Source: a virus. Taken from it: a stretch of 40,091 nucleotides of DNA. The stretch covers positions 1-40,091 of the IMG/VR virus record IMGVR_UViG_3300028025_003477. One strand, given 5' to 3'. Position 1 is the first letter of the stretch. Every line of letters starts with the position of its first letter. The notes below the pieces were generated by a model, which saw only the letters and a list, made by a program, of their open reading frames with translations, had not been told where the DNA came from and made no database searches. Shown in pieces: positions 1 to 34,308 of the stretch. The position numbers were made by a program, and so were the translations under genes.

Positions 1-3000
1 CGTTACCCCATACGGTGTGATTATCTATTGCAGAAGTTGTAGCGTTGTCTCCTATAACAATATTATTATCTGTACCAGCATAAAAGTTAGCAGCAGAACT
101 ATTACCAATTGCAATATTATACTTACCGTTGCTATTAAATTGCATTGCAAACTGCCCAACGGCAATATTTGCTCTACCTACATCATTAGAATTTAAAGCT
201 CTATCTCCAACAGCTGTATTCCAAAGACCAGTAGTGTTGAGATTTAAAGCGCCTTTACCTACTGCAGTATTTCCTGCACCTGTTGTATTACAGCGTAATG
301 CACAGAATCCCATTGCTGTGTTGCCGTAACCAATAGTGTTACAGGAGAGCGCTAGGTTTCCAGTAGCGGTGTTTTGATATCCAGTAGTATTAGCTTTTAA
401 TGCGCAAAATCCTACTGCTGTATTATCGGATGCTGTATTTGCTTGTAGAGAATAAAACCCTACAGCAGTATTACCGCCTCCAGTAACGTTTTGTTGTAGT
501 GATGAATATCCAACAGCAGTGTTATTTATTCCTGTTGTATTAGTAAATAGAGCTGTTCTACCAAATGCAGAGTTTCCTGTGCCTGATGTGTTTGAATATA
601 ATGTTCTGTCACCTACTGCTGTTAAATACCTGCCTGTATTTACTTTTAAAGCGCTTCTACCTATTGCTACGTTATTACAGCCTGTTGTGTTACATCTAAG
701 AGCTTCAACACCTATAGATATATTATTAGTTGCAGTTGTATTTTTTTCTGAAGCAAGTCTACCAATAGCTATATTGAGAATTCCTGTAGTATTACTTGAT
801 AATGCTAAAGAACCAATAGCAGTATTGTCATTTCCTATTGTATTACTATTTAATGCACAAAATCCTACTGCTACGTTGTCTATACCAGTGGTATTAGTAC
901 AAAGTGCATTTACACCAACTGCTGTATTAAATCCACCTGTTGTATTAAATCTTAATGCGCTTTCACCAATAGCTGTATTACTATTTCCTATAGTATTAGT
1001 AAGTAATGCTGAAACACCAAGGGCAGTATTATTAGCTCCTATTGTATTAAACCTTAAAGAATATGCACCTATTGATGTATTAGAAGTTCCTGTTGTATTA
1101 CATCTCAAGGCATAAAATCCTAATGCTGAATTATTTGCTGCTGTTGTGTTAGCTCTTAATGCATTAGTACCTACAGCAGTATTATTACTAGCAGTATTTT
1201 GATTCAAAGATCTATATCCAATAGCTACGTTTGATCCTCCAGCAGTATTAGTTTCTAATGCTGTAAAACCTAGAGCAGTGTTGGAAATACCTGTGGTATT
1301 TGTTCTTAAACTATATGAACCAACTGCTATATTGTTTGTTCCTGTAGTATTACTTCTTAATGCACAGACCCCTATAGCTGTGTTGTTGGATGCTGTGTTA
1401 CAGGATAATGCATTTCTACCAACAGCAGTGTTATTAACACCTACAGTATTACAGTTTAAAGCAGTACTACCTATAGCAGTATTACTAATACCTGTCGTAT
1501 TATTTCTTAATGCACTATATCCAAGTGAGGTATTATATTCACCTATGGTATTACAGTATAAAGCTGTTCTACCAACTGAGGTGTTGAACCTACCTATTGT
1601 ATTTTCCCTTAATGAATTAAAACCTACTGCTGTGTTGTTTGATGCTGTGTTATAGCGTAAAGCATTAGAACCAATAGCAATATTTTGATCACCTGTTGTA
1701 TTATTTCTTAATGCACTATTACCAAAGGAGATGTTATTATTTCCTGTAGTGTTGCTTGCAGATGCACCATATCCAAAGGCATTATTATTTCCACCTGTTG
1801 TGTTACCAAGTAAAGCAACATAACCTACTGCTGTATTACCGCTTGCTAAGTTAGCGGCCAAAGCTCTACCGCCAATAGCTGTAGATTTAATACCTGTTGT
1901 ATTACATTCTAATGCACTTGCACCTACTGCTACATTACCAAATCCTGTTGTGTTTTTATATAAAGTATTTCTACCTACTGCTGTGTTTTGAAAACCTATT
2001 GTGTTAGCTTTTAATGCACCATAACCAACGGCAGTTTGACTATCTCCTGTTGTATTATTTTGTAGAGAAGTACCACCTAATGCTGTGTTATTTGCTCCTA
2101 TCGTATTACTTGTTAATGCATTTACACCAATAGCAACATTGTTTATACCACTTACGTTTAATCTCAAAGCTTGATGACCTATAGCTGTATTGCAGGTACC
2201 TACTGTATTACATTCTAATGCTCTAAATCCTAGAGCTGTATTAACATTACCGGTCGTAGTACTAAACAACGCACTATATCCTACAGCTGTATTAAAACAG
2301 GCTGTATTATTACGTAATGCACCAACTCCCACTGCTACGTTATAGTTACCAGATACACTTAAACATAAAGCGTATGCACCTACTGCTACGTTTCTGATAC
2401 CTGTTGTGTTTTTAAATAATGCTCTATATCCTAAAGAAGTGTTATTAGAACCTATAGTATTGTAAAATGCTGAGTAAAGACCTACTGCAGTGTTATTACT
2501 ACCGCCTGTATTAAAAATTAAAGCAGCATCACCTATAGCGGTATTTCTTTGGCCTGTAGTATTATCTCTTAAAGCTAATCTACCTACAGCAGTATTTTTA
2601 ATACCTGTTGTATTAGCTCTTAATGTTGCGTACCCTAGTGCTACGTTATCTGTACCAGTGGTATTGCTTCTTAATGAATGGAAACCCAGTGCTGTATTAT
2701 TTGATGCTGTATTACATTGTAGAGCATTTCTACCAATAGCAACGTTAGCGTTACCTGCTGTATTACAGTATAAGGCTTGATGACCTATAGCTGTATTGCA
2801 AGCACCGCTTTGGTTGCTTTGAAGAGCAGCCTTTCCTACAGCAACGTTGTATGAACCTATACTGTTATTTCCAAGAGCATCATATCCTATTCCTACGTTA
2901 CTAATACCAACGGTATTTGTTCTTAGTGGACCTCTACCTACTGCAGTATTTCCTGCACCTGTTGTATTACTAGCTAATGTGCACCATCCTAATCCAACGT

Positions 3001-4906
3001 TTCCTGAACCAGTAGTATTACTTCTTAATGAGCAGAAGCCAACTGCTGTGTTATCTGATGCTGTGTTTGATCGGAGAGCTAGATAACCTAATGCAGTGTT
3101 ATTGTTTCCAGCAGTGTTAAGTCTTAGAGCATCAGTACCAACTGCTGTATTGTTACTACCCCCAATATTATATGCTGAGGCAAAACAACCTACAGCTACG
3201 TTAAGTTTACCTGTTGAATTATTTCTAAGAGCACAAGTACCTATTGCAACACTTCCATATCCTACGGTGTTTGATAATAAAGCTTCGACACCAACAGCTA
3301 CGTTTCGGGCACCAGTGGTATTATATCTTAAACTCGCATATCCTACACTTGTATTTCTAGCACCAATTGTATTTGCTCTTAAAGCAAATGATCCAACTGC
3401 TGTATTAGCTGCTCCTGTGGTATTACCAAGTAAAGCTTGAGCACCTACTCCTGTGTTATTAGCAGCTGTGTTTGAAAATAATACTTGAGATCCAACAGCA
3501 GTATTGCTAGTACCTACAGTGTTACAGCCTAAAGTACAAAAACCTATTGCTGTATTATAGGCACCTGTGGTGTTTGCTACTAATGCAATGTATCCGAGTG
3601 CTGTATTATTGAATCCTGTGGTGTTAGCTCTTAACGAAGCGTAACCAACAGCTGTATTGTTGTTTGCGGCATTGCTACATAATGCATTATGTCCTATAGC
3701 TGTATTACTATTAATCGTAGCTCCTGTAGATAGAGCATCTCTACCCATTGCAACGTTATTACCGCCGGTTGTAATAGAACAACCAGCATGCATACCTACA
3801 GCTACGTTATTGGTTCCTCCTGTAGTAAGTCTTAATGCTCTAAGACCTACGGCTATATTGTATTGACCTGTTACATTTGATGAGAGAGCATAATTTCCTA
3901 CAGCTGTGTTGCTTACGCCAGTGGTATTTAATTCTAATGTACTTCTACCAAGTGCAACATTATTTGTTCCTGTTGTATTTGATTGAAGAGCACTTCTACC
4001 TACTGCTACGTTATTTGATACTATGTTTGAATATAAGGCTTGAAATCCAACAGCTACATTATTCGTACCAGTAGTATTTGCAGCTAAGGTACTATTGCCT
4101 ACAGCAGTATTACTTGTACCTGTTGTATTTAATCTAAGAGAGCCTGCACCTAAAGCTACATTATAATTTCCAATTGTATTTGCTCTTAAAGAATATCTAC
4201 CAAGTGCTGTGTTATAATTACCTGAAGTGTTACTTAATAATGAATTAAATCCAATACCTACGTTATACTTACCAATTGTATTAAAATACAATGATTGTAA
4301 TCCAACAGCTACATTACCAGCACCTGTTGTATTTCTATTTAATGATGAGTTTCCAACAGCTGTATTAAAGTTACCTATAGTGTTACAACATAAAGATTTA
4401 TAACCTAATGCTGTATTTTGTTGACCTGTTGTATTACTTTGTAAAGCACTTTTACCTACTGCTACGTTATTAGCGCCGGTGGTATTATTACATAATGCAT
4501 TAGTACCGATTCTAGTATTAGTTGAAACACTTCCCTCACCTCTACCTATATTTACAGAATTAACTGTAATATCACGATCAAATGTAGTAGGGCCGTTTAC
4601 ATTTAAACTACCAGTTATACTAACAGAACCTGTGAATTGATGTGTATTTGACAATGAACTACCAAATACGGTAGATCCTGTCATATAACTTATAGAAGAC
4701 GTTATAGTCTGTACTACAAGTGTTTGAGCAGTAATTGTACCTCCGACATTTAAACTTCCTGAGATATTGATAGATCCTGTAACTGAGTGTACATCGGTAA
4801 TGACACTACCAATTTTTACTCCAGTTTGTAAGACTTCAAATTCAGTTGTACTCCCCGTGATAACTGATAACGATCCTGTAATTACTGTACTTTGTAATTG
4901 AGCCAT
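1..4906 (-). CDS. Giant beta-roll repeat fibre protein, partial (3' end beyond window)
   Basis: The frame opens with ATG at 4904-4906, one base after the stop of the upstream fibre gene. The codon phase I checked at 4906, 3089, 1625 and 2-61 is the same, so at least 1635 codons run off the left edge. Residues 1-110 are TGS-rich cassettes also found in the 2625-aa fibre (TEFEVLQTGVKIG, then HQFTGSVSITGSL). From about residue 127 the protein is tandem 17-residue units of the type NTAVGxxALxxNTTGxN, like the neighbouring 2171-aa protein and reminiscent of YadA-type beta-rolls. The last visible residues (IVIGDNATTSAIDNHTVWGN) break the repeat and look like the exit from the roll, so a C-terminal chaperone domain may follow outside the window. 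The role is probably a tail or host-recognition fibre; this is inferred from architecture and position. Confidence 0.85.
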   Translation of the reverse strand, partial: MAQLQSTVITGSLSVITGSTTEFEVLQTGVKIGSVITDVHSVTGSINISGSLNVGGTITAQTLVVQTITSSISYMTGSTVFGSSLSNTHQFTGSVSITGSLNVNGPTTFDRDITVNSVNIGRGEGSVSTNTRIGTNALCNNTTGANNVAVGKSALQSNTTGQQNTALGYKSLCCNTIGNFNTAVGNSSLNRNTTGAGNVAVGLQSLYFNTIGKYNVGIGFNSLLSNTSGNYNTALGRYSLRANTIGNYNVALGAGSLRLNTTGTSNTAVGNSTLAANTTGTNNVAVGFQALYSNIVSNNVAVGRSALQSNTTGTNNVALGRSTLELNTTGVSNTAVGNYALSSNVTGQYNIAVGLRALRLTTGGTNNVAVGMHAGCSITTGGNNVAMGRDALSTGATINSNTAIGHNALCSNAANNNTAVGYASLRANTTGFNNTALGYIALVANTTGAYNTAIGFCTLGCNTVGTSNTAVGSQVLFSNTAANNTGVGAQALLGNTTGAANTAVGSFALRANTIGARNTSVGYASLRYNTTGARNVAVGVEALLSNTVGYGSVAIGTCALRNNSTGKLNVAVGCFASAYNIGGSNNTAVGTDALRLNTAGNNNTALGYLALRSNTASDNTAVGFCSLRSNTTGSGNVGLGWCTLASNTTGAGNTAVGRGPLRTNTVGISNVGIGYDALGNNSIGSYNVAVGKAALQSNQSGACNTAIGHQALYCNTAGNANVAIGRNALQCNTASNNTALGFHSLRSNTTGTDNVALGYATLRANTTGIKNTAVGRLALRDNTTGQRNTAIGDAALIFNTGGSNNTAVGLYSAFYNTIGSNNTSLGYRALFKNTTGIRNVAVGAYALCLSVSGNYNVAVGVGALRNNTACFNTAVGYSALFSTTTGNVNTALGFRALECNTVGTCNTAIGHQALRLNVSGINNVAIGVNALTSNTIGANNTALGGTSLQNNTTGDSQTAVGYGALKANTIGFQNTAVGRNTLYKNTTGFGNVAVGASALECNTTGIKSTAIGGRALAANLASGNTAVGYVALLGNTTGGNNNAFGYGASASNTTGNNNISFGNSALRNNTTGDQNIAIGSNALRYNTASNNTAVGFNSLRENTIGRFNTSVGRTALYCNTIGEYNTSLGYSALRNNTTGISNTAIGSTALNCNTVGVNNTAVGRNALSCNTASNNTAIGVCALRSNTTGTNNIAVGSYSLRTNTTGISNTALGFTALETNTAGGSNVAIGYRSLNQNTASNNTAVGTNALRANTTAANNSALGFYALRCNTTGTSNTSIGAYSLRFNTIGANNTALGVSALLTNTIGNSNTAIGESALRFNTTGGFNTAVGVNALCTNTTGIDNVAVGFCALNSNTIGNDNTAIGSLALSSNTTGILNIAIGRLASEKNTTATNNISIGVEALRCNTTGCNNVAIGRSALKVNTGRYLTAVGDRTLYSNTSGTGNSAFGRTALFTNTTGINNTAVGYSSLQQNVTGGGNTAVGFYSLQANTASDNTAVGFCALKANTTGYQNTATGNLALSCNTIGYGNTAMGFCALRCNTTGAGNTAVGKGALNLNTTGLWNTAVGDRALNSNDVGRANIAVGQFAMQFNSNGKYNIAIGNSSAANFYAGTDNNIVIGDNATTSAIDNHTVWGN
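62..4525 (-). repeat. Tandem 51-bp coding repeats (beta-roll array 2)
   Basis: About 85-90 head-to-tail 51-bp units encode 17-residue repeats, with some 48-bp units where TASN replaces the usual TTGxN turn. The protein pattern is strongly conserved but synonymous codons differ from unit to unit. The count is estimated from length divided by period. Confidence 0.85.
4597..4740 (-). repeat. Fibre cassette copy in the downstream fibre gene
   Basis: This segment encodes TITAQTLVVQTITSS, then HQFTGSVSITGSL. It is the same cassette that occurs six times in the 2625-aa fibre gene, here joined directly to the start of the 51-bp repeat array. Confidence 0.8.
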
Positions 4907-4907
4907 T

Positions 4908-7900
4908 TTACTGTGTTAGTTTTTTTACTTCTTCCTTTAAAACCTCTATCTGCGACTGTTGATACTTCAACACATTAATAAATATTGTCGAAAGCTTGCT
5001 ATAGTTTATACCCGCTATTTCTTCCGAGCTATCTTTTGATACGAATTCAGGAAATATATTATAAACATCTTCCGCTAAAAGACCAACATCTTTATTTCCA
5101 GTATCTTTCCAAGTAAAAGAAATTGGTTGTAATTTTAGGAAATCCTCAATGTTTGTTGTGTATGGTTCAATGTTTTCTTTTAATTTTCCTGTTGATGTTT
5201 CTATAATGGCAACGAATCTACCAGTGCCGTTTACATCGAAGGTATAGGCAGGAGTTAGGGTGTTTATACCTGTATTTCCTGTAGATCCAGTTACAAACAT
5301 CCTTATATTTCCAGCACCATCAGAAAGTATGATGTTGCAATTTGAGGTTGCGATGTCTGTACCTGAATTAGAACCTACTATTACGTTGCAGGCACCGGTT
5401 GTAATGGAGCAACCTGAATTGGTGCCTAGGGCTGTGTTGTTGGCGCCAGTGGTATTTGCTCTTAACGAACAGAGACCTACTGCTGTATTGCTTGATGCTG
5501 TATTACAGAATAAAGCGTCTCTACCAATAGCAACACTATCATTTCCTGTTTGGTTACTTACGAGTGAGTTAACACCGATTGCTATGTTATTACCACCAGA
5601 TGTGTTACCCTGTAGAGATCCAACACCCAGTCCAACGTTATTTGAACCTACAGTATTATTTACTAATGAATTAGTACCTAGTGCTGTATTAAGTGTTCCT
5701 ACAGTATTAGTTTGTAAAGCACTTTTACCTAAGGCTGTATTGTTACAGCCTGTAGTGTTGTATAAAAGTGAATTTACACCTACAGCTGTGTTATCTGTTC
5801 CTGTTGTATTAGCTCTTAGGGATAGAGATCCTATAGCTGTGTTGTTAGAGGCTGTATTAGCAAATAGAGCGTTTCTACCAAGAGCAGTGTTGTTAGAACC
5901 CACAACGCTAGTGTATAAGGCAAGTGTACCAACTGCTGTGTTATTAGTTCCAGTCGTATTATTTTCTAGTGCACTTGTTCCTATCGCAACGTTAGCACAG
6001 GCAGTGGTGTTTTTTCTTAATGCATAAGGACCTAAAGCTATGTTACTGTTTCCTGTTGTATTACTTCTTAATGCACAGAATCCAATTGCTGTATTGTTGG
6101 ATGCTGTATTTTGACGAAGAGCATACACACCAATTGCTGTATTATTAGCTCCTGTAGTATTTAGTCTTAAAGCTGCATATCCCATTGCTGTATTGCAGTT
6201 TCCTGTAGTATTGCAGTATAAAGCTAAATGTCCAAAAGCTTGGTTGTATTTACCGGTGGTATTAAATAGAAGAGCTTGTGCTCCTACTGCTGTGTTAAAT
6301 CCACCAGTAGTATTACTTCTTAAAGAACAGAAACCAACAGCTGTATTATTAGATGCTGTACTACAGTATAGAGCCTCTCTACCAATAGCTACGTTTGAGT
6401 TACCTGCTGTATTACTAAATAAAGAAGTAACGCCTAACGCTACGTTATTGATACCTGTTGTATTTTTACATAATGCTTGAGAACCAACTGCTGTATTATA
6501 ATTTGCAGTATTAACAGCTAAAGTAGCATTACCAATAGCTGTATTCTGTGTTCCTATTAAGTTGTTTGCTAAAGCAGATGTACCTACAGCTGTATTAAGG
6601 CCGCCTGTAGTATTGCATCTTAAAGTAGCATAACCAAGTGCTACGTTATTAGCACCTACCGTATTATCACGTAATGCACGATTACCAACAGCAGTATTAT
6701 AAGTACCAGTTGTATTACTTCTTAATGCACAGAATCCTACTGCTGTATTATTTGATGCTGTGTTACAATATAAACTGTATGCACCTAAAGCTACGTTACT
6801 AGTTCCAACTGTGTTTGCAAACATAGCATTAGTACCTATTGCTGTGTTTCTTGTTCCTGTTGTATTAGAGAATAAACTATTAGTACCTATTGCTATATTA
6901 CCACCGCCTGCTGTATTATTAATTAAAGCTTGAGATCCTAAAGCTGTGTTTTGTTCACCGGTTGTGTTGCCTTGTAAAGCATAAATACCGACAGCTGTAT
7001 TTCTAATACCTGTTGTATTAAGACATAAAGCATTTCTACCAATAGCTGTGTTACATGTACCTATTGTGTTACATCTTAGGGCACTAAAGCCTATAGCTGT
7101 GTTACTTGATACTGTGTTAGCAGATAAAGCACTTGCACCTACAGCTGTATTAAAACATCCTGTTGTGTTTGACTCTAATGCTCTAGTACCTAAAGCTGTG
7201 TTACAAGCGCCATTAGTATTAGCATATAATGTCCTATGACCAACAGATGTATTATTATTTGCTGTACTAAATACTTGAGAGTATTGTCCTATAGCAACGT
7301 TATTAGTTACTGTTGTTCCATCTCTTAATGTAGCATGTCCTAAAGCTACATTTGATGCTCCTGTAATATTAGCTCTTAAAGCACAGAAACCTACTGCTGT
7401 ATTTGCTGTTCCTGTAGTATTACTTCTTAAAGCACAAAATCCAACTGCTGTATGGCATGATACTAAGTTAGAATATAGCGAATAAGTACCAATAGCTGTA
7501 TTATTTATACCTGTAGAATTAAGTCTGAGTGCTTTAAATCCAATACCCACATTATTTGAAGCATTATTTACTCTTAATGCATCAAATCCAATTGCTACGT
7601 TATCACTACCTACTTGGTTAGCAAGTAAGGAACAAACTCCAATAGCAGTGTTTCTAACTCCTGTTGTGTTAGCACATAAGGAAAAAACACCTAAACCTGT
7701 ATTACAACTACCAGTAGTATTTTTATATAAAGACAAATATCCTAATGAGGAATTATAAGTACCTGTTGTATTATTACCTAGAGCACTGCTTCCGACTGAT
7801 GAATTACGAATACCTACTGTGTTACATGCTAAAGCACTTACACCCACTGCTACGTTATTTGTGCCTGTTGTATTGTTTCTTAATGCACTAGCGCCTACAG

Positions 7901-10900
7901 CTGTGTTACTTGATGCTGTGTTACACCTTAATGCTTGTGTTCCCACAGCGGTATTACTACCGCCTGTTACATTTGATAAAAGAGAATACCAGCCTAAAGC
8001 TGAGTTACTTCCACCTGTTGTGTTTTCTTGTAGAGCACTTCTACCTAAAGCAGCGTTGTATGTACCTGTTGTGTTACATCTTAGCGCACTGCTACCAACG
8101 GCGGTATTATTAGAGGCTGTATTAGCAAGTAAAGAATAAACTCCTATAGATGTATTGCTACATCCTGAAACATTATTAAGCATGGATCTATAACCTACAG
8201 CTACATTACAATTACCTGTAATGTTCGCTTGTAAAGCATTTACACCAAGAGCAGTATTAAAACCTCCTGTTGTATTACTAGTCATTGCGTAGTTACCTAC
8301 GGCTACGTTTACTAGACCTACAGTATTACTTTTCAGTGTATTTTTACCTACTGCTGTATTAAGTGTTCCTGTTGTATTGTTTCTTAATGCACAGAAACCA
8401 ATTGCTGTGTTATCTGATGCTGTATTACAGTAAAGAGCATTAGCTCCAATAGCTACGTTATTATTACCTGTACTATTATATAAAAGTGAATAGGTACCTA
8501 ATGCAGAGTTACTATTACCGGTTGTGTTATTACGGAGTGCCTTTATACCTAATGCAGAGTTATTTGTTCCTGTAGTATTAGTTCTTAATGTACAGAAACC
8601 GACTGCTACGTTATTTGATGCTGTGCTGCAACGTAAACTCTCATTACCCACTGCTACGTTATAGTTACCTGCAACGTTAGCTCCTAATGCACTATTACCA
8701 ATAGCTACGTTACATCTTCCTGTTGTATTACTGGCTAATGCACTTGCTCCAATTGCATTATTATATCCTCCTGTTGTATTGTTGGCTAATGCACTTCTAC
8801 CGAAAGCTGAGTTATAGTTACCAGTTGTGCTGCAGCATAAAGCAGCAAGACCTAAAGCTGAGTTGCCTGCGCCTGTAGTATTACTTCTTAATGCACAGAA
8901 TCCTACTGCTGTGTTGTTTGATGCTGTGTTATATCGTAATGCATTTAGACCAACGGCTGTATTTGATACACCTACTGTGTTTACTGCTAAAGCACTATTA
9001 CCTACTGCTACGTTAAATGTCCCTGTAGTATTTGCGTTAAGAGCATCGTGGCCTACTGCTGTATTGCTCGATGCTGTGTTCTGGAGAAGAGCATTATATC
9101 CAAGTGCTGTATTGTTATCTCCTGCTGTATTAGTATACAGTGCTCCTCTACCTAATGCTGTATTTTTATTTCCGGTTGTGTTACTCCTTAAAGTTAACGT
9201 TCCGACGGCTGTATTACAAATACCTACTGTATTGGCAAATAAAGCACAATTTCCTACTGCTACATTTCCTGTACCGCTTATATTAGAACATAAAGCAGAT
9301 AGACCTACAGCTACATTATTAATACCGACAGTATTACACCTTAATGTATTGTTACCAATAGCAGTGTTATATGCTCCTGTTGTGTTTGTATTAAGAGCAG
9401 CGTGACCTACTGCTACATTACATGATGCTGTACTTGTACGTAAAGCACTGTTACCTATGGCTATGTTATTTCCGGCTGTAGTGACACAGTATAAAGCACA
9501 GTTACCGAGGGATATGTTAAATACACCTGTGGTTGTTCTAAGTTGTGATAGAACGCCTACAGCTATATTATTATTTCCTGTTGTGTTAGCCGGTAACGCT
9601 CCTGAACCTACTGCTGTATTATACTGACCTACTGTGTTAGCCGTTAATGTTCCTGAACCTACTGCGGTATTAGAGCCACCAGTTGTATTGGCACATAAAG
9701 TGTTAATTCCTACAGCAGTATTTCCTGTACCTGTTGTATTAGCATATAATGCCAAAGTTCCTACCGCTGTATTATTTGATGCTGTATTAGCTCTTAATGC
9801 AGAAACTCCAATAGCTGTATTGCTGCTTCCTACTACATTTGTACAGAGAGATAAATTACCAACAGCTACGTTATTATTACCTGTGGTATTTTTATATAGA
9901 GCAAATCTACCAAAAGCATTATTACATATACCTACAGTATTTGAACCTAATGCAAAATATCCAACTGCTGAGTTTTGAGCTCCTGTTGTGTTAGCTGCAA
10001 GAGCGGATACTCCTAATGCTGTGTTAAGTGTTCCTGTTGTATTACACCTCATTGCATTAGTACCAACTGCTGTGTTATTTGATGCTGTATTACACACTAA
10101 AGCATTTATACCTACTGCTACATTACTAATACCTGTTGTGTTATTAAATAATGATTGAAAACCAACAGCTACGTTACAAACACCTGTTGTGTTAGATTGT
10201 AATGAATAAGTACCAACTGCTACGTTGTAGCTACCGTTATTTGTATATAATGCATTTAAACCTAAAGCAACGTTTCTATTTCCTGTTGTATTACACCTTA
10301 AGGCTTGTACACCATGAGCTGTATTTAAACTTCCTTCTGTGTTTGCTACTAAGGAGTTGAAACCAACTGCTGTATTAAAACATCCTGTTGTATTTACACG
10401 CAAAGCACCAGACCCCATAGCAGTATTTCTACCACCAGTAGTATTGTCTCTTAAAGCTGAATTACCGACAGAGGTGTTATAGATTCCGACTGTATTGCCT
10501 CTTAATGCGCAACGGCCTACTGCAGTGTTATTTACTCCTGTAGTATTTTGTTCAAGAGCAGACCTACCAAGAGCAGTATTGTTATCGGCTATAGTATTTT
10601 CAGCTAAAGCATTAAGACCTACTGCTGTATTGTACCTACCAACAGTATTGGCTCTTAACGAATTAACACCAACAGCAACGTTTTCTGTACCTGTAGTATT
10701 GCTTCTTAAAGCACAAAAACCTACTGCAGTATTATTAGAAGCTGTATTGCAAAATAAAGAACGATTACCTAAAGCTGTATTATTATTTCCTGTTACATTA
10801 GTAAATAGAGCGTAATATCCAACAGCTGTATTAGAAGAACCTGCTGTATTATAAAATGAAGCATTTCTGCCTATTGCAATGTTTTGTAGTCCTACTGTGT

Positions 10901-11423
10901 TAGAACTTAATGCACTTCTACCAACAGCTACGTTGTTGGTACCTGTTGTGTTGCTTCTTAAGGCAAAATAACCAATAGCTGTATTATTTGATGCTGTGTT
11001 TAAGTTTAATGCTTCTCTACCAACAGCTGTATTCTGGTTGCCAGTTGTATTACATATTAAAGCACCTTGACCAACAGCAGTATTTGAAATACCAGTTGTA
11101 TTTTTATAAAGAGATTGATGACCTACAGCTGTATTACCTGCTCCTAAAGTATTGGCTCTTAGGGCTTGGGAACCCATAGCTGTGTTAAAAGCACCTATAC
11201 TGTTATTTCTTAAAGCATATAATCCAACAGCTGTGTTTTGTGCTCCTGTAGAGTTGTATTGTAGAGTATTAACACCTACTCTAGTATTAGATACTACACT
11301 ACCTCCTCCTTCACCTACACAAACTCCATTAAATATAGAATCACAAGTAGTTGACAATGATCCTGTCACTTGTGAATTCTGTAGTGCTATTATTCCTAAC
11401 CGGGCTACGAATTCATTTGGCAT
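4908..11423 (-). CDS. Giant beta-roll fibre protein with C-terminal S74 intramolecular chaperone
   Basis: This 2171-aa protein is probably a trimeric fibre or adhesin on the virion tail. A short N-terminus is followed by a cap-like stretch (GEGGGSVVSNTRVG, near residue 45). Roughly 115-120 tandem 17-residue units (NTAVGxxALxxNTTGxN) then run to about residue 2030. The last 100 residues match the endosialidase-type chaperone (peptidase S74): STGKLKENI, then LQPISFTWK, VGLLAEDV and a terminal coiled coil (QSQIEVLKEEVKKL). In that family the domain drives trimerisation and then cleaves itself off, here plausibly just before the serine of STGKLKENI. About every sixth unit is a 16-residue TASN variant, often followed by FCALRSNTTGT. 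Cysteines are frequent in the repeats. The start ATG follows a short hairpin leader. Receptor specificity cannot be read from the sequence. Confidence 0.9.
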   Translation of the reverse strand: MPNEFVARLGIIALQNSQVTGSLSTTCDSIFNGVCVGEGGGSVVSNTRVGVNTLQYNSTGAQNTAVGLYALRNNSIGAFNTAMGSQALRANTLGAGNTAVGHQSLYKNTTGISNTAVGQGALICNTTGNQNTAVGREALNLNTASNNTAIGYFALRSNTTGTNNVAVGRSALSSNTVGLQNIAIGRNASFYNTAGSSNTAVGYYALFTNVTGNNNTALGNRSLFCNTASNNTAVGFCALRSNTTGTENVAVGVNSLRANTVGRYNTAVGLNALAENTIADNNTALGRSALEQNTTGVNNTAVGRCALRGNTVGIYNTSVGNSALRDNTTGGRNTAMGSGALRVNTTGCFNTAVGFNSLVANTEGSLNTAHGVQALRCNTTGNRNVALGLNALYTNNGSYNVAVGTYSLQSNTTGVCNVAVGFQSLFNNTTGISNVAVGINALVCNTASNNTAVGTNAMRCNTTGTLNTALGVSALAANTTGAQNSAVGYFALGSNTVGICNNAFGRFALYKNTTGNNNVAVGNLSLCTNVVGSSNTAIGVSALRANTASNNTAVGTLALYANTTGTGNTAVGINTLCANTTGGSNTAVGSGTLTANTVGQYNTAVGSGALPANTTGNNNIAVGVLSQLRTTTGVFNISLGNCALYCVTTAGNNIAIGNSALRTSTASCNVAVGHAALNTNTTGAYNTAIGNNTLRCNTVGINNVAVGLSALCSNISGTGNVAVGNCALFANTVGICNTAVGTLTLRSNTTGNKNTALGRGALYTNTAGDNNTALGYNALLQNTASSNTAVGHDALNANTTGTFNVAVGNSALAVNTVGVSNTAVGLNALRYNTASNNTAVGFCALRSNTTGAGNSALGLAALCCSTTGNYNSAFGRSALANNTTGGYNNAIGASALASNTTGRCNVAIGNSALGANVAGNYNVAVGNESLRCSTASNNVAVGFCTLRTNTTGTNNSALGIKALRNNTTGNSNSALGTYSLLYNSTGNNNVAIGANALYCNTASDNTAIGFCALRNNTTGTLNTAVGKNTLKSNTVGLVNVAVGNYAMTSNTTGGFNTALGVNALQANITGNCNVAVGYRSMLNNVSGCSNTSIGVYSLLANTASNNTAVGSSALRCNTTGTYNAALGRSALQENTTGGSNSALGWYSLLSNVTGGSNTAVGTQALRCNTASSNTAVGASALRNNTTGTNNVAVGVSALACNTVGIRNSSVGSSALGNNTTGTYNSSLGYLSLYKNTTGSCNTGLGVFSLCANTTGVRNTAIGVCSLLANQVGSDNVAIGFDALRVNNASNNVGIGFKALRLNSTGINNTAIGTYSLYSNLVSCHTAVGFCALRSNTTGTANTAVGFCALRANITGASNVALGHATLRDGTTVTNNVAIGQYSQVFSTANNNTSVGHRTLYANTNGACNTALGTRALESNTTGCFNTAVGASALSANTVSSNTAIGFSALRCNTIGTCNTAIGRNALCLNTTGIRNTAVGIYALQGNTTGEQNTALGSQALINNTAGGGNIAIGTNSLFSNTTGTRNTAIGTNAMFANTVGTSNVALGAYSLYCNTASNNTAVGFCALRSNTTGTYNTAVGNRALRDNTVGANNVALGYATLRCNTTGGLNTAVGTSALANNLIGTQNTAIGNATLAVNTANYNTAVGSQALCKNTTGINNVALGVTSLFSNTAGNSNVAIGREALYCSTASNNTAVGFCSLRSNTTGGFNTAVGAQALLFNTTGKYNQAFGHLALYCNTTGNCNTAMGYAALRLNTTGANNTAIGVYALRQNTASNNTAIGFCALRSNTTGNSNIALGPYALRKNTTACANVAIGTSALENNTTGTNNTAVGTLALYTSVVGSNNTALGRNALFANTASNNTAIGSLSLRANTTGTDNTAVGVNSLLYNTTGCNNTALGKSALQTNTVGTLNTALGTNSLVNNTVGSNNVGLGVGSLQGNTSGGNNIAIGVNSLVSNQTGNDSVAIGRDALFCNTASSNTAVGLCSLRANTTGANNTALGTNSGCSITTGACNVIVGSNSGTDIATSNCNIILSDGAGNIRMFVTGSTGNTGINTLTPAYTFDVNGTGRFVAIIETSTGKLKENIEPYTTNIEDFLKLQPISFTWKDTGNKDVGLLAEDVYNIFPEFVSKDSSEEIAGINYSKLSTIFINVLKYQQSQIEVLKEEVKKLTQ
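5320..11290 (-). repeat. Tandem 51-bp coding repeats (beta-roll array 1)
   Basis: About 115-120 units of 51 bp, with periodic 48-bp units, encode the 17/16-residue beta-roll repeat. A higher-order period of about six units (about 300 bp) is marked by TASN units. Repeat boundaries degrade near 5320-5440 (SGCSITTGACN, SNSGTDIATSN) before the chaperone domain. Confidence 0.88.
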
Positions 11424-11456: not shown

Positions 11457-11467
11457 GGGGGTTTACG

Positions 11468-11476
11468 TATAAATAT
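11468..11476 (-). promoter_or_regulatory. ATATTTATA box upstream of the 2171-aa fibre gene
   Basis: This exact nonamer (gene orientation) overlaps the last base of the 62-aa gene stop and lies 44 bases before the fibre ATG. It is one of about ten copies placed at transcription-unit boundaries in this window; a promoter role is proposed, not shown. Confidence 0.5.
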
Positions 11477-11664
11477 TATACTATAGCCGCTATTTGTGTT
11501 ACACGATACAACCTTCCTGTAGGATCTGCTGCCTGCAACTCATCAGCCTTAGCTTGTGCTTCAGACTCATTATCATATTCATAAATTGGATCTGATGGGG
11601 AAAGATGTGCTACCCAAATTGAATTATTGTCTGGAATGAATTGCATTTGTACTTGAAAAATCAT
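11476..11664 (-). CDS. Small 62-aa protein between two giant fibres
   Basis: A 62-residue protein of unknown function with no signal peptide or membrane segment. Its N-terminal half (IFQVQMQFIPDNNSIWVAHL) looks like beta strands. The C-terminal half contains an alanine-rich acidic helix (SEAQAKADELQAADP) and a final strand (RLYRVTQIA), so a small folded domain is likely. It starts 18 bases after the 2625-aa fibre gene with an A/T-rich leader and no Shine-Dalgarno sequence, so it probably shares that transcript. Its position suggests a fibre accessory, chaperone or joint protein, but nothing in the sequence proves this. Confidence 0.7.
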   Translation of the reverse strand: MIFQVQMQFIPDNNSIWVAHLSPSDPIYEYDNESEAQAKADELQAADPTGRLYRVTQIAAIV

Positions 11665-11682: not shown

Positions 11683-14600
11683 TTACATAAACGTAGCTAT
11701 AGATTTAATTGCCCAACCACTAGTATTGGTTTGCATATTGAATTGTACTTGACCAGTTACAATGACTACTGATGACGTTATTGCTGTTGTATTACCAATA
11801 TCTACAGTTGAATTATCATAAAATTGTGCTGTAGCACCATTCCACACAGCAACTACTTCACCTGATCTAGCGTTTGAGGCGCTAGCGCATGTATATTTGA
11901 AGAATGCTGATGTGTATGAACCTGTATTTTGAGAGAATAGGTTATTTGATCCTACTGATGATGCTCCTACTGAGGCATAGTCTGTTAATGTTTGATCTAA
12001 TACTAATGTACTTGCTATTATGAAGTTAGTTGCATAAGATGCTGTTGCAGCATAAGATGCTGATGTGGTATTATTTGCCCAACTTGAGGTACCAAAGAGA
12101 GAGCCAGTGATGCCTGCTCCTACAACGTTTAATGATCCTGTTATACTTACACTACCAGTAAACTGATGTGTGTTTGAAAGTTGAGTTCCAAACCTAGTAG
12201 ATCCAGTTACGAAATCAATACTGGAGGTAATTGTTTGTGCTACGATTGTTTGAGCGGTGAGGGTACCCCTAACTAGGAAGTTATCTGCGCTTGATGCAGT
12301 TAAAGCAAATGATGCTGTTGTAGCAGTTCCTAGTAAGGATCCTGTAAATGAAGTGGCAAACACATTACCGTTAACGTGTAAGGAGGCGGATGTTGGGGTT
12401 GTAATGTTTATACCAATACTACCACTTCTTCCTGAAATTATTCCACCACCACTTCCTAGTTTAATAGATGCTACTCCTTGATCTTGTTGTCCATAAACAC
12501 CAAGTGTGTTTGCAACGTTTATATCCCATAATTCAGCATCATCACCACCTCTAAAGTACATAGCACCGTTTGCGTTAGCATAAACAGCGCTTGTGGCTCT
12601 TATATCTCCAGTTACATCTAATTTATAGGCAGGAGAGATAGATCCTATACCAACATTAGTACCATTATCAAATAATGATCCAGTAGTTAATGTAGTTGAA
12701 CTAGCCCATCTAGCAACATAGTTTGTTGCACCACCAGTTAAACTAGAGCCGATAGCTGTAGTAATAATATTACCACCAGAATCAACAGATAAATTAGCAA
12801 CTGCTGATCCAGAGAATGCACCTGAACCTGTGTATGCAGGAAACTGAACTTGTTTAGAATGCATGTTAAAATTAGCTATTACAGCATCACTTCCTGCATT
12901 AGTACCTCTTAATAGTCTAGTTTGGTTTTGCCAGTTATCCCACATTGAAGCGGTTGTATAAGTACCGCCTTGTGCTTGTAATAATAATTGTCCGCCTTCA
13001 CCTGTACCTCCTGCGGGTGCTGGTCCTATAATTAAGGTATTTTCAGTAGCTCCAGCAGATGCCGCTCCTACTGTTAAACTACCTGTTATTAATACATTTT
13101 GGTTAAGTGTATTAACAAATGATGCTGTTGAAGCGAACGATGCGCTTACAGCGTTTAGTACATAAGATGATGTTGTTGCATTATTAGCCCAGCTTGAGGT
13201 GCCAAAGAGAGAACCAGTAAAGTTGGTTGCAATTACGCTACCACTAATATTAAGTGAGCCAGTTACTGTGTGAACATCAGTAATTGCATTACCTATTTTA
13301 ACACCCGTGTTTGTAACTTGAAATTCGATAGCGCTGCCTGTTACTACTGTAAGAGAACCAGACATTACTGATGAACCGGATACAGTTAAGGCGTTTCCCG
13401 TTGCGAGGGTTCCTATAGATAAATTTCCTGCAAGATAATTATTCGCAGTCCCTGCCCCATACAATCCCCAACCGCTATTGTTACTCCATTCAATTGACCG
13501 CCAATCAGCAGCAGCGGTTAATGTTGGTCTTACATATAAACCCCTTGTAATACCATTAGCACCGCCCGTTTGATTTATAGTAGAAGATAAATCTAAATCT
13601 GTATATGTTGCAGTTCCGCTTGTTGGTGCAAATGTTATTAATGATTGTATGTTTTGATTTGCCCCACTTGTGCCAGTTAATGAACTTGCATTATCAAATA
13701 TTTTAAATGCCCTACCAGCAGTTCCGCCATTACTTCTAAAGTAAAAAGCCTGATTCGCTGACATAATTGTATAATTAGCCTCTCCACTCATTGTTAATGA
13801 AGTGCCAACAAAATTGAACAATGCAGCTAAATCATTTCTTAATCTTAAAATGTTATTACCATCACTATTTTGTACGGTTAAAGCACTTGTCGCACTCGTT
13901 GCTCCACTACCAGTAATAACCATATTACCAGCAAATCTGCTAGAACCGGATACTTGGAGGCGTTCGCCTGTATCTGTAAAAGTACCTCCGTTTTGAATGA
14001 GAAGATTACTTGTTGCACCAAATAATCTCATTTTATCTATCCCATTAGTTCTAAACAATATGTTATTACTCGCAGCAGCTCCAATAACATTAATTATTGC
14101 ATCAGAATTATCATGAGACAAAGAAAGATAGTTTGCACAGCCAAAACATCCATCTATATGTATAATGTGAGCTCCTGTTCTAATGCTATTAGCAACACTT
14201 AGTTGATTTGGTGGTGTATTAGTTCCAATCCCTAATCTACCATTTGCATTATCCCAAAAGAAGTTAGAATTATTTTGTGAAACAGCGCCATTAGTTCCGG
14301 AAAATAATACACTACCTGTAGACAAGTAAGGTAGTGCTAAGCTACCTGTTATACTTACACTACCAGTAAATTGATGCGTATTAGCTAACGAGCTACCAAA
14401 CCTAGTAGAACCAGTTACAAAATCAGTACTGGATGTAATTGTTTGTGCTATGATTGTTTGTGCTGTAAGAGTGCCTCTTACTAGGAAGTTATCGGCGGAA
14501 GATGCTGTTGAAGCGAATGAGGCAGATACTGCATTTAAAGCATAAGATGCTGTAGTTGCATTAGTGGCAAATGAAGCGCTTACTGCTTGTAAGACATAAG

Positions 14601-17600
14601 AGGCTGTTACTGCGTTAGTAGCGAATGATGCACTTACTGCATTTAAAACGTATGAGGCAGTAGTTGCATTAGTGGCAAATGAAGCGCTTACTGCTTGTAA
14701 GACATAAGATGCTGTTGTTGCATTTGCTGCATTTGTAGCGAATGAGGCACTTACTGCTTGTAAAACGTAAGAGGCAGTAGTTGCATTTGCTGCGTTAGTA
14801 GCGAATGATGCACTTACTACGTTTTGGGCCCAGCTTGAAGTGCCAAATAAAGAGCCGGTAATACCTGCTCCAGCAACATTTAATGAACCTGTTATGGATA
14901 CACTACCCGTAAACTGATGTGTGTTTGATAATGAACTACCAAAACGGGTAGAGCCAGTAACAAAATCGGTTGATGATGTAATTGTTTGAGCTACAATCGT
15001 TTGAGCAGTTAATGTTCCTCTTACTAAGAAGTTATCTGCTGATGATGCTGTTAATGCTGTAGTAGCAAATGAAGCAGTTGTTGCTGTTGCAGCATTTCCA
15101 CTAATAGAGGCACTTATAAATGATTGATTTTCCCACTTTAAAATTACATCATCGTATACTAAAGCTTGACCATTTGTTGGGCCTGTTATTAATACATCTG
15201 ATAGATCTACTAATCTATTAGTTGTAGCACTTCCACCACCCCCGGAACCACCTATGTTTCTAAATAATCCAGCTTGTCTAATAGAATATGTTGCTGTATT
15301 TGTAAAATTAGCATTTCCTTGTAATACTAAAATAGCAGATAAAATAGCTCCAGCTGCTGTGTTGGGTGCTTCTGTAAAATTTTCTGTTGTTATATTAGCT
15401 ATAGCTTCTAACTGAGAGTCATATATTGCGTTGCCATAATAAACATAGATTCCTTTAGTAGCTCCTCCGGGGAAATAAAATACTCTTTGTAAAGACCATT
15501 TATTATTAGCTACCGATGCTAAGGTTCCATTATTATTATATTGTGCGGGGTCTATTGCTGTAAATCCAGCGCCTCCATTTGTTAAATAAACCCATCCAGA
15601 ACCACTTGAATAATATCTAAATATTTTAGAATTGGGCTGTCCTGTTTCGATTACATAGCTTGGATTATTAGGATCAGTTACATAATTTCTACCTTCACTA
15701 TATGCAGTTCCGCTTGTTATTACTAATCCTCCTGCAGTTGAACCGCTAGGAAGTGTATTTAATCCTGATAACTTTAATGCGCCGAAAGCTCTAATGAAAT
15801 CACTAGATCGTTGTTTATAAGCATATGCTACACTAGGATAAGTAGCTGTAGCATTTATAGTAGAGCGATTTTGATGAATAACATTACCTATTGGAATAAG
15901 TGTATTGAATTCCCCATTATCATATGGAGTACCTTGAGCATAAATGATGCCTGTACCTCCTGATTGCTGTATTGCAATAAAAGACTGATCGAAGGAAGCA
16001 CTCAAAGGAGCTATACTAGCTGATAGAGTAGGCCATTCAATAAATTGTGTTGTTGGATATGGATCTGTTGTTACAGAAGCATTCATTGCTACTATAACAC
16101 CACTACCACTCGATACTTGGTATACAGTAGACGATTGTGTTGTAATTAAACCGCCATGCAATAAACCAGTATATAAATTACCTTCTAACCAACGTAAACG
16201 AGTTACGTTATTATATCCTGCAGAGTTTTGAGAAAAATATAAGTCATTTGTAGATCCACTTACAAAAACATAAGAAGCAGATATTGAGGTATCTATATTA
16301 GTAGAGTAGGGTTCAAATTTAAGATACCCTGTCATTGTAGTATCACCATATATTTGTACAGATGATGATAAACTACCTACGGGATATGAAGAAGAAATTA
16401 TAATACTACCTGTTAATATAGTGTCGCCCAATAGTGTATTATTTCCTACTTGAGTAGTAGAACCTGATATTAAAAAGGAACCTGTTAGTGTTTGAGTACC
16501 TCTAAATGTTTGAGACCCACTTACATTAATACTACCTGATAGTATTGTATTTCCTATTAATGTGTTGTTGCCTATTTGAGTTGTAGAACCAGTAATATTA
16601 ACAGATCCTGTAATAGTATTTATACCAACAAATGTTTGAGACCCACTTACATTAATACTACCACTTAAAACAGTATTTCCTATTAATGTGTTTGAACCAC
16701 TGGTAAATAAACTACCAGTCACTATTTGATTGCCTATAAAGATATTTGAACCTGTTGTTGCAAATACAGATGAACCAGTACCATTTAATAAAACAGAATT
16801 AGCAGCTTGAGAAGCACTTATAGCAAATGATGCTGTAGTTGCATTAGTAGAAAACGAGGCACTAGTAGCATTTAAAGCATATGAGGATGATAAAGCAGCA
16901 ACTGCTTGAGATGAGCTTATAGCCCAACTAGAGGTTCCAAATAACGAACCTGTTATTCCTTGTAATACTGTTAAACTACCACTTACAGTCATTGACCCAG
17001 TAACTACTGAGATAGATGAGGTAATGGTTTGAACAATTATTGTTTGGGCGGTTAATGTTCCTCTAACAGTAAAATTGTCTGCTGATGATGCTGTTGCTGC
17101 TTGAGAGGCAGACACGGCATTTAATACGTAAGAGGCAGTAGTTGCATTTGTAGCGAACGAAGCACTTACGGCATTCAAAACATAAGATGCTGTTGTTGCA
17201 TTATTAGCAAACGATGCTGTTCCAAGTAAAGAACCTGTAAATGATCCGGTAAAGGATCCTGTTCTATATGAACTAGTAAAATTTAAAATACTAGCCGAGA
17301 AAGCATACAATGATGCTGTGGCACTTTCTAAAGATCCTAACCTAGTATTTGCACTAGAGGTAAAATTATATATTGAAGCAGTAGCACTTTCTAAAGCTCC
17401 TAAACGTGTATTTACGCTAGAAGTAAATGATAAAATTGAAGATGAAAATGCATACAATGATGATATCTTACTATCATTAGATGATGTATATGATAGCATA
17501 CTAGCACTGAAAGCATATAATGAAGATGTAGCTGCTTGAAGTGAACTAGTAGCATTATATATTGAAGCTATCTTACTATCAGTAGATGAAGTATAGTTTT

Positions 17601-24904: not shown

Positions 24905-25453
24905 TCATAATAATGAATCGGATTTAACCCTATTTTCAGTTATAGTAAGTGGTTGTGTGTTAGTGTAATGAAATGATCCACCTTTAGCTAAAGGATATAT
25001 ATGATCTATTTCCCAATATGAACCATAATTTTCCCAATTCATTTCTGGTGTAAATAGTGGCTCAAGATATGCTTTATATTCTTGTATTGTACAGTCTAGG
25101 TAGTCGATGCTGCTTTGTGATTTACCTTCTTTAAGGTGGTGGTGTATAAGAGCGTTGATTGCGTGGCGGAGGCGGAAGAGTGGATCTGTATCATATTTAG
25201 TTTGATTCCATTGGCGGTAATAATCTTTGTTAGAATGGTAGTGAGATTTCATCAATTCATTATGGCGATCTCTATTTTCTTTATGCCATTTATTAGTACG
25301 TTTAAGATGTATTTCCTTGTTGTTTGTATACTCTATTTTATGTTTTTCACTCCTACATCCTTTACAATAGATATGATATCCGTCAGGAGTATCTTTTTTT
25401 CTACAATATTGATCTAGTGATTTATTAATACTACATTTTTTACATTTTTTCAT
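24905..25453 (-). CDS. Free-standing HNH homing endonuclease
   Basis: The N-terminus has a zinc-ribbon arrangement (CKKC near residue 4, then CKGC about 30 residues later). The C-terminus carries the HNH core: EIDHIYPLAKGG, an Asn in NTQPLTITENR, and a final Lys/Asp motif. Such genes encode site-specific nucleases that spread themselves into phage genomes lacking the insertion. I place the start at the ATG at 25451-25453 (MKKCKKC); an upstream TTG at 25471 is in frame but falls next to the terminator U-tract. The length is 182 aa. It sits directly downstream of the capsid genes, a frequent place for homing genes in T-even phages (segD lies next to gene 23). The target site is not identifiable. 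Confidence 0.88.
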   Translation of the reverse strand: MKKCKKCSINKSLDQYCRKKDTPDGYHIYCKGCRSEKHKIEYTNNKEIHLKRTNKWHKENRDRHNELMKSHYHSNKDYYRQWNQTKYDTDPLFRLRHAINALIHHHLKEGKSQSSIDYLDCTIQEYKAYLEPLFTPEMNWENYGSYWEIDHIYPLAKGGSFHYTNTQPLTITENRVKSDSLL

Positions 25454-25458
25454 ACATG

Positions 25459-25467
25459 TATAAATAT
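25459..25467 (-). promoter_or_regulatory. ATATTTATA box upstream of the HNH gene
   Basis: Exact nonamer 5 bases before the chosen ATG and just after the terminator U-tract. This spacing is too short for a normal promoter-plus-leader, which counts against the chosen start, the promoter reading, or both. Confidence 0.45.
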
Positions 25468-25475
25468 ACAAAAAG

Positions 25476-33699: not shown

Positions 33700-34286
33700 A
33701 TAAATCCACCTGCCGTTTTGTTATTTCCTCTAGCAGCTTTATCTATAGTTTGAATGTTTGTTTTTATTTTTGCTTCTGTTACTGATTGGAATTCTTGAAT
33801 AAAATTACCTTGTAAATCATATTGACTAACATAGAAACTATTAGCTTTCTTTATTTTAAGTGCTCTTTCTATGTTTTGGCTTATTAAATTTCTTGTTTCA
33901 TCACTTACACTATTTTTACACTTCCATGTTTTTCCTTTAGTAAATGATTTTCCTTTTCTATCATTACTTAATAATAATTTTGTCGCATCCTTTACTATTC
34001 TACCATATTGTCCTTCACCCCCATCTGTCATATTAACTAATGTTCCTAATTTTAAATCACTTCTACCATACAATTTAATAAATTCAATTTCTTTCTCACA
34101 AGCTTGTTCCCAAGTTAAATCTTCTGCTATTATTTCAACTTCGTATGGTACATTATTAGTAATATTATTCCAATGTTTATTTCTACCCTTTTTATTATAT
34201 GCTCTTTTATAATCACTATCGGACCCAATCCCTACGTAAAAGGGTTCGTTTTTATCCAATCTAATATGTCGGTATAAGTATGCCAT
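33684..34286 (-). CDS. Free-standing GIY-YIG homing endonuclease (Seg-like)
   Basis: The N-terminal catalytic domain shows YLYRHI and FYVGIG as the GIY...YIG pair, a conserved Arg/Tyr region (KRAYNKKGRNKHW), the catalytic Glu in KEIEFIKLYGR and NMTDGGEG. A lysine-rich linker (KGKSFTKGKTWK) follows. The C-terminal part (YDLQGNFIQEFQSVTEAK, then AGGFIWKYK) resembles the NUMOD1 DNA-binding repeat of homing endonucleases. The start is taken at the ATG at 34284-34286 (200 aa), because the longer frame would begin with TTG at 34301. It sits between portal and head core genes without disrupting either, as for T4 seg genes. Confidence 0.9.
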   Translation of the reverse strand: MAYLYRHIRLDKNEPFYVGIGSDSDYKRAYNKKGRNKHWNNITNNVPYEVEIIAEDLTWEQACEKEIEFIKLYGRSDLKLGTLVNMTDGGEGQYGRIVKDATKLLLSNDRKGKSFTKGKTWKCKNSVSDETRNLISQNIERALKIKKANSFYVSQYDLQGNFIQEFQSVTEAKIKTNIQTIDKAARGNNKTAGGFIWKYK

Positions 34287-34299
34287 AGAAATTACTATC

Positions 34300-34308
34300 A
34301 ATAAATAT
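34300..34308 (-). promoter_or_regulatory. ATATTTATT variant box upstream of the GIY-YIG gene
   Basis: One mismatch from the nonamer, 13 bases before the ATG and 7 bases after the portal stop. Confidence 0.4.

What the first reader, a model, noticed from the sequence alone, without database searches (positions are those of the whole stretch)
4908..11423. Very large beta-roll with a two-level repeat hierarchy
Around 115-120 units of 17 residues are punctuated about every sixth unit by a 16-residue TASN unit, often followed by FCALRSNTTGT. The super-period of about 100 residues suggests growth by duplication of multi-unit blocks, and the shorter turn may introduce regular kinks or register marks along the fibre.
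Basis: seen in the sequence. Interest (0 to 1): 0.55.

Follow-up and report, generated by a model that had tools for sequence, protein, structure and literature searches.

The report
Phage fibre built from swappable blocks
A virus that infects bacteria carries a very long tail fibre made of 118 stacked protein layers, and the odd shorter layer that turns up every few layers seems to mark the joints where whole blocks of layers are swapped between related viruses.

Summary
The pattern is real. ORF 4908-11423(-) is a 2171-residue phage fibre with 118 layers, 22 of them one residue short (mostly TASN-type). Short layers lie 2-10 units apart (mean 5.2), more evenly than chance; they alone explain the super-period peaks (lags 84, 101, 168). 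The neighbouring gene 2-4906(-) is a second such fibre (88 units, 12 short). The model fits the YadA-like beta-roll; the C-terminus is an S74 chaperone. The phage is T4-like.

Growth by internal block duplication is not supported. The shafts are mosaics: an orthologue keeps both ends (89% and 88% identical) yet shares only 33 of 117 layers, in rearranged blocks of 2-15. In the strict block sets most breakpoints fall at the short layer plus the next one (12 of 14; 15 of 22), more than size alone predicts; in the loosest set this excess vanishes. DNA there is unusually alike between fibres, including synonymous sites. I read the punctuation as recombination joints that keep frame and layer register. 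This is known fibre mosaicism in a new form: many joints inside the shaft. A structural role for the short turn is not excluded.

The parts
4908..11423 (-). fibre gene 1 (P1), 2171 aa: short N-terminus, 118-unit shaft, S74 C-terminus
11289..11423 (-). P1 residues 1-45, conserved N-terminus (MPNEFVAR...)
   Evidence: residues 1-62 are 88.7% identical to the orthologue in L473, 78-80% to L416 and L475
5337..11288 (-). P1 shaft, residues 46-2029, 118 units of 17 or 16 residues
5040..5186 (-). P1 residues 2080-2128, Peptidase_S74 (PF13884) match; Ser and Lys of the recalled SDxxxK motif kept, Asp replaced by Thr
10986..11033 (-). short unit 6
10734..10781 (-). short unit 11
10227..10274 (-). short unit 21 (atypical N-NGSY tail)
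10077..10124 (-). short unit 24
9774..9821 (-). short unit 30
9420..9467 (-). short unit 37
9066..9113 (-). short unit 44
8916..8963 (-). short unit 47
8613..8660 (-). short unit 53
8412..8459 (-). short unit 57
8109..8156 (-). short unit 63
7908..7955 (-). short unit 67
7554..7601 (-). short unit 74
7455..7502 (-). short unit 76 (NLVSC tail)
7254..7301 (-). short unit 80
7104..7151 (-). short unit 83
6750..6797 (-). short unit 90
6498..6545 (-). short unit 95
6348..6395 (-). short unit 98
6096..6143 (-). short unit 103
5844..5891 (-). short unit 108
5490..5537 (-). short unit 115
8562..8915 (-). shared block: P1 units 48-54 = L473 fibre-1 units 37-43 (aa 0.92, DNA 0.91)
7806..8108 (-). shared block: P1 units 64-69 = L473 units 98-103 (aa 0.88, DNA 0.86)
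6699..7451 (-). shared block: P1 units 77-91 = L473 units 69-83 (aa 0.90, DNA 0.90)
5943..6095 (-). shared block: P1 units 104-106 = L473 units 59-61 (aa 0.88, DNA 0.83)
5388..5489 (-). shared block: P1 units 116-117 = L473 units 109-110 (aa 0.97, DNA 0.99)
2..4906 (-). fibre gene 2 (P2), 1635 aa, 3' end cut off by the contig end; 88 units, 12 short
4520..4906 (-). P2 residues 1-129, N-terminus before the units; residues 1-146 are 98.6% identical in L473 fibre 2
374..928 (-). shared block: P2 units 72-82 = L473 fibre-2 units 34-44 (aa 0.91, DNA 0.92)
68..472 (-). shared block: P2 units 81-88 = L473 fibre-2 units 56-63 (aa 0.81, DNA 0.86)
4013..4060 (-). P2 short unit 10
3659..3706 (-). P2 short unit 17
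3458..3505 (-). P2 short unit 21
3053..3100 (-). P2 short unit 29
2699..2746 (-). P2 short unit 36
2294..2341 (-). P2 short unit 44
1838..1885 (-). P2 short unit 53
1637..1684 (-). P2 short unit 57
1385..1432 (-). P2 short unit 62
1184..1231 (-). P2 short unit 66
626..673 (-). P2 short unit 77
425..472 (-). P2 short unit 81
11683..19560 (-). third large fibre-like gene upstream (2625 aa, low-complexity ASYA/TGS repeats), context only

Best explanation
The ORF is a long tail fibre of a T4-like phage of the Flavobacterium-phage type (host inferred). Its shaft is probably a homotrimeric left-handed beta-roll of the YadA-head kind, about 57 nm if each layer rises 4.8 A as in BpaC, capped by an S74 intramolecular chaperone. 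The shaft is a mosaic of blocks of a few layers. The short TASN-type unit and the unit after it (consensus NTASN-NTAVGFCALRSNTTGT) form a joint: the most conserved stretch between otherwise unrelated blocks. Phage recombination joins blocks from different fibres at these joints, so that frame and layer register are kept and new combinations of surface residues arise while N-terminal anchor and C-terminal chaperone stay constant. Shown here: repeat, spacing, signature, mosaic and non-colinear blocks, breakpoint enrichment in the strict block sets, extra DNA likeness at joints. Inferred: trimer, recombination as the cause, host-range benefit.
For: Even spacing and signature of short units. Fold: model pLDDT 83.7, pTM 0.80; CbpF Z 16.8, BpaC head Z 15.4 at 33% identity, YadA Z 13.9. 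S74 E 3.9e-08, above cut-off. Mosaic: P1 and its orthologue share 33 of 117 units in five non-colinear blocks at aa 0.88-0.97, while the N-terminal 62 aa are 88.7% and the C-terminal 137 aa 88.3% identical; P2 and its orthologue share 98.6% of the N-terminal 146 aa but 17 of 88 units. Further blocks with other contigs in other positions and order, same-codon 0.61-0.82 in the strongest against 0.49 background; weaker blocks range down to 0.42 (P2 61-67 with L414). Breakpoints: 109 of 182 block ends at or next to the post-short unit, circular-shift mean 63.2, s.d. 6.9. With short and post-short units masked, strict sets: 12 of 14 breaks span a joint in both fibres, 1 in one, 1 in none, against 7 of 55 interior steps; or 15, 3 and 4 of 22 against 10 of 72; binomial P 0.004 and 0.019 after allowing three times the exposure, 'one-fibre' breaks left out. 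Joints between fibres: DNA identity 0.685 against 0.566, exact runs of 20 nt or more in 6.7% against 0.04% of pairs; same-codon at consensus residues of non-homologous pairs 0.532 against 0.482, bootstrap difference 0.031-0.063. RecA-type hits in 4 of 4 large relatives, 3 over cut-off.
Against: In the loosest block set (2 units, 13/17 identical) the enrichment vanishes once exposure is allowed for (25 of 45, P 0.32). Four threshold settings were tried, and the blocks are few and partly overlapping. Even spacing is significant in P1, P2, L412-3052 and L414 (P up to 0.0084) but not in L412-14260, L413, L415, L417, L166, L169-2742 or L170. Synonymous excess is modest, and absent for short-short pairs inside P2 (0.453 against 0.462). 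The joint's protein sequence is conserved too, so a structural role could explain part. Many TASN contigs were fetched by a TASN or joint pattern. Foldseek's PDB E-value is weak (0.036), and four of five models had pLDDT of 60-67.
Confidence: 0.6

Rival explanations
1. The short unit is purely structural: a tighter turn, with a matching next layer, that relieves twist or adds a bend every 3-8 layers; selection on the fold keeps it, and block ends coincide with it because recombinants are viable only there or because it is simply the conserved part.
For: Protein signature conserved across fibres: Arg10 enriched after short units in P1, P2, L412, L413, L414; one-residue shortenings far outnumber lengthenings (16 vs 18 residues: 401 vs 55); spacing avoids 1-2 units.
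Against: Excess of identical synonymous codons at joints is not needed for a protein-only role; many homologous 17-residue-repeat fibres have few or no short units.
Confidence: 0.28
2. One reading: the shaft grew by tandem duplication of ~100-residue multi-unit blocks.
For: Autocorrelation peaks at 84-101 and 168; weak diagonal correlation of unit similarity in P1 (0.024, 0.033 of shuffles reach it).
Against: No clear internal block match in P1 or P2; the peaks persist when unit order is shuffled within classes; longest exact internal repeats 35-36 nt.
Confidence: 0.05
3. The mosaics are assembly artefacts: short-read assemblers mis-joined repeats at shared k-mers.
For: Joints are the most alike DNA, where mis-joins would fall.
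Against: Longest internal exact repeats are 35-36 nt, shorter than usual reads; the P1 and P2 blocks shared with L473 differ by 1-17% at DNA level, so they are not copies of one sequence; two contigs from different metagenomes carry the same 154-unit fibre unit for unit, and a 121-unit stretch of a second fibre is identical in two (DNA 1.00).
Confidence: 0.07

Closest known systems
Left-handed parallel beta-roll heads of trimeric autotransporter adhesins (YadA, BpaC, CbpF)
   Same: Model aligns with Z 13.9-16.8 over 140-184 residues; invariant Gly and Asn/Thr-rich layers; BpaC paper gives 14-residue layers, 4.8 A rise, rare indels between layers and a speculation that layers are gained or lost (PMC9543794, passages).
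   Different: 17-residue unit, no hit to a YadA head or anchor Pfam model at E<=1, phage S74 ending; BpaC shows an internal three-layer expansion, this fibre shows none.
Marine and cyanophage fibres with NTAxG repeats and S74 domain (P-SSM2, HTVC112P, CRP-1, Venkman; PHROG 23837, 6002, 4636)
   Same: Same unit, same S74 motif in several.
   Different: 0-6 short units each in the isolate or complete-genome fibres parsed (L172-L174, L177, L178, L180), without the dense TASN punctuation of these contigs.
Mosaic tail fibres recombining at conserved motifs (T-even distal fibre genes, recalled; T5-like ltf genes, PMC4728585, passages)
   Same: Recombination in repeated or conserved stretches proposed to exchange host-recognition parts; PMC4728585 names direct repeats in ltf genes as likely recombination hot spots.
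   Different: Here joints recur about every 5-6 layers through the shaft, and both ends, not only the N-terminus, are conserved.
Bdellovibrio MAT fibres (PMC10769870, passages)
   Same: Trimeric fibres with S74 or other tips, chimeric by domain.
   Different: Chimerism is at tip domains, not among shaft layers.

Membership tests
Phage fibre with Peptidase_S74 chaperone (PF13884) | S74 domain at the C-terminus above curated cut-off | tested here: met
   33.9 bits against 22, residues 2080-2128
Phage fibre with Peptidase_S74 chaperone (PF13884) | SDxxxK active-site motif (recalled; also in PMC10769870) | tested here: inconclusive
   P1 has STGKLK: Ser and Lys kept, Asp changed to Thr, also in its orthologue; Ser and Lys invariant in 6 of 6 aligned sequences
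Phage fibre with Peptidase_S74 chaperone (PF13884) | autocleavage and trimer | not testable with these tools
   needs expressed protein
Trimeric autotransporter adhesin | YadA-like beta-roll head fold | tested here: met
   model of units 86-98, Z 13.9-16.8 with CbpF, BpaC, YadA; fold only
Trimeric autotransporter adhesin | YadA head or membrane-anchor Pfam domain | tested here: not met
   only PF13884 found in P1, nothing in P2, E<=1
Trimeric autotransporter adhesin | 14-residue layer | tested here: not met
   17 or 16 residues
T4-like phage | gp23 capsid, prohead protease, portal, terminase | tested here: met
   PF07068, PF03420, PHROG portal and terminase; nearest named terminase 53.5%, Flavobacterium phage immuto
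Modular fibre exchanged by recombination at conserved motifs | homologous blocks in different order in different fibres | tested here: met
Modular fibre exchanged by recombination at conserved motifs | breakpoints at the conserved motif | tested here: inconclusive
   enriched in three of four threshold sets after exposure correction, not in the loosest
Modular fibre exchanged by recombination at conserved motifs | exchange changes host range | not testable with these tools
   no isolate of this phage at hand

The most novel reading that the evidence does not exclude
T4-like phages of this aquatic group share a pool of beta-roll blocks, each ended by a standard joint, and build fibres of 100-230 layers by repeated block exchange. 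The shaft, not the tip, is the diversified and possibly receptor-reading surface, held between a conserved anchor and a conserved chaperone: a natural cassette grammar for fibres.
Probability: 0.35. Interest if true: 0.75.

Novelty: new variant of a known kind. Interest (0 to 1): 0.55.

Why it matters
Repeat fibres are usually read as spacers. If short layers are joints, sequence alone shows where nature cuts and rejoins a trimeric beta-roll without losing register. That gives a directly testable rule for fibre evolution and length change, and makes metagenomic repeat fibres, hard to compare by ordinary alignment, comparable as strings of blocks.

Tried and rejected
Solved-structure search by sequence gave nothing. 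Diversity-generating retroelement as source of the variable positions: considered, not pursued; K, E, Q and M at those positions do not fit Asn-codon mutagenesis (recalled rule); no reverse transcriptase search was run. Cysteine ladder: Cys sits almost only in variable columns 7, 10, 11, 16, 17, but same-column neighbours are not enriched (P1 3 against 6.4 expected; P2 4 against 2.8). A first colinearity test was distorted by falsely parsed units in L415 and was redone with cleaned units. Search for the joint in one genome for each of 84,980 cellular species: 0 matches to the exact degenerate pattern. Twenty records of the terminase-related phages gave no P1 match (0 of 20), but most are fragments; 9 of 20 hold the gene that in the window lies next to the 2625-aa fibre gene; six of these nine were read further, and there the place is taken by other fibre-like genes, three of which have the same M-x-NEF start (L159, L161, L164), one of them (L164) with ten NxAxG motifs. 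Second structure job and third fold search not used: the trimer question cannot be put to a monomer predictor. Papers: ten searches were run and one call more returned an error (93); none of the listed papers was seen to describe joints in repeat fibres, but only open-licence papers are held and only passages were read.
Full report
WHAT IS THERE. The window is one 40,091-base viral contig. Its recognisable genes include a T4-like head set (terminase, portal, prohead protease, gp23) and PhoH; the nearest named terminase is 53.5% identical, Flavobacterium phage immuto. At its left end lie three giant fibre-like genes: 11683-19560, 4908-11423 (P1, the finding) and 2-4906 (P2, cut off by the contig end).

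THE REPEAT. A profile parse gives 118 units in P1 and 88 in P2; 22 and 12 are short in the last turn. Spacing in P1 is 5,10,3,6,7,7,3,6,4,6,4,7,2,4,3,7,5,3,5,5,7 units: irregular, yet far more even than random placement (0 of 20,000; P2 0.0013-0.0019). The peaks at 84, 101 and 168 residues are produced by these short units: shuffling the units within their class while leaving the short positions alone reproduces 0.348 of the 0.369 at lag 101. The unit that follows is special.

WHAT IT IS. Pfam finds an S74 chaperone in P1; PHROGs calls the best-matching repeat families virion structural protein or tail spike. A 218-residue model built with 50 aligned stretches has pLDDT 83.7 and pTM 0.80, though the other four models were at 60-67. 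Foldseek against PDB has CbpF first at E 0.036; the second aligner gives CbpF, BpaC and YadA heads Z 16.8, 15.4 and 13.9, with a curli subunit at 15.0 and GlmU, a left-handed helix enzyme, at 13.2 among them, so the fold class is well supported, the exact kinship less. In BFVD 88 models match at E<=0.001, many named S74 or chaperone proteins. BpaC has a rise of 4.8 A per layer (PMC9543794, passages), whence about 57 nm for 118 layers (inference).

ONE-OF-A-KIND OR WIDESPREAD. Of 200 unit-bearing arrays from fetched loci plus P1 and P2, the ones rich in short units came from a handful of contigs. Of the first six such records tested, three carry a terminase 55-59% identical to the window's; of eleven more, three, at 57%, which share fibres unit for unit where compared. 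Closer relatives had no P1 match (0 of 20), with the limits told under Tried and rejected. In cultured phages the best matches to a 50-residue joint stretch reach 67%.

MOSAIC. Contig G038 (L473) holds orthologues of both fibres. P1: N-terminal 62 residues 88.7%, C-terminal 137 residues 88.3% identical, but only 33 of 117 units are shared above threshold, in blocks 48-54, 64-69, 77-91, 104-106, 116-117, matching 37-43, 98-103, 69-83, 59-61, 109-110 there, so not in order (117 because one of the 118 parsed units fails the cleaning filter). Identity mostly falls within about one unit from near 0.8-1.0 to 0.5-0.6; the right end of block 64-69 is more gradual. P2: N-terminal 146 residues 98.6%, shaft 17 of 88 units. 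Other fibres share other blocks with P1 and P2, again out of order (P2 48-57 and 75-81 match L412 units 145-154 and 48-54). Inside P1 and P2 no convincing block repeat exists. Same-codon fractions in the stronger blocks (0.61-0.82) against a background of 0.49 argue for descent; weaker blocks lie at 0.51-0.59, and one (P2 61-67 with L414) has only 0.42.

BREAKPOINTS. All five P1-L473 blocks start at the unit after a short unit of P1. Over 48 blocks among 24 arrays, 109 of 182 ends lie at or next to such a unit against 63.2 by circular shift. Because these units resemble each other anyway, I masked them and called blocks from the remaining units only. Four settings were tried: breaks spanning a joint in both fibres / one / none were 25/6/20, 18/1/3, 15/3/4 and 12/1/1, against interior steps 12:87, 7:57, 10:62 and 7:48. 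Allowing a joint step three times the exposure of a plain one, and leaving out the one-fibre breaks, P is 0.32, 0.0036, 0.019 and 0.0038. The loosest setting fails; I think it is diluted by chance two-unit matches, but that is my reading.

WHY THERE. Between different fibres the joint is the likeliest place for DNA pairing: identity 0.685 against 0.566, exact runs of at least 20 nt in 6.7% against 0.04% of pairs. Part of this is protein conservation, but synonymous codons agree more than expected (0.566 against 0.473; plain 0.492 against 0.479), and at the same consensus residues in non-homologous pairs 0.532 against 0.482. RecA-type matches occur in 4 of 4 large related records, 3 over cut-off. 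Blocks between joints average 6.25 units, s.d. 2.8, n = 198.

CONCLUSION. The two-level hierarchy is real. It is best read as a beta-roll fibre assembled by evolution from exchangeable blocks, with the short layer and its successor as joints. The structural and the recombination reading can both be true. Names recalled and not from a call: T-even distal-fibre recombination at conserved motifs, the SDxxxK motif (also seen in PMC10769870 passages), retroelement mutagenesis rules.

Noticed in passing
25541-27238 and 27292-28896 (-): Two tandem gp23-type capsid genes with nearly identical ends and a different middle (by eye).
   Followed up: no
24905-25471 and 33684-34301 (-): ORFs that look like an HNH endonuclease (by eye, no Pfam hit) and a homing endonuclease (weak NUMOD1 match, below cut-off) lie between head genes.
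   Followed up: partly
P1 and P2 shafts, 5337-11288 and 68-4519 (-): P1 and P2 have 61 and 32 cysteines; those in the units sit almost only in the variable columns, 0.50 and 0.36 per unit, and likewise in most related fibres but not in L169. Unexplained for an extracellular fibre.
   Followed up: partly
about 11461-11661 (-): Small ORF of about 60 codons between the 2625-aa gene and P1 (read by eye).
   Followed up: no
L413 (G027), L412 (G028): Related fibres are even larger: open frames of 4288 aa with about 214-229 units and 3724 aa with about 202 units.
   Followed up: partly
L484:13615-16776 (immuto): A 'tail spike' of the nearest cultured phage carries a few 17-residue NTAxG units followed by SHAEG-type repeats resembling the classical 14-residue YadA layer (resemblance by eye).
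   Followed up: no
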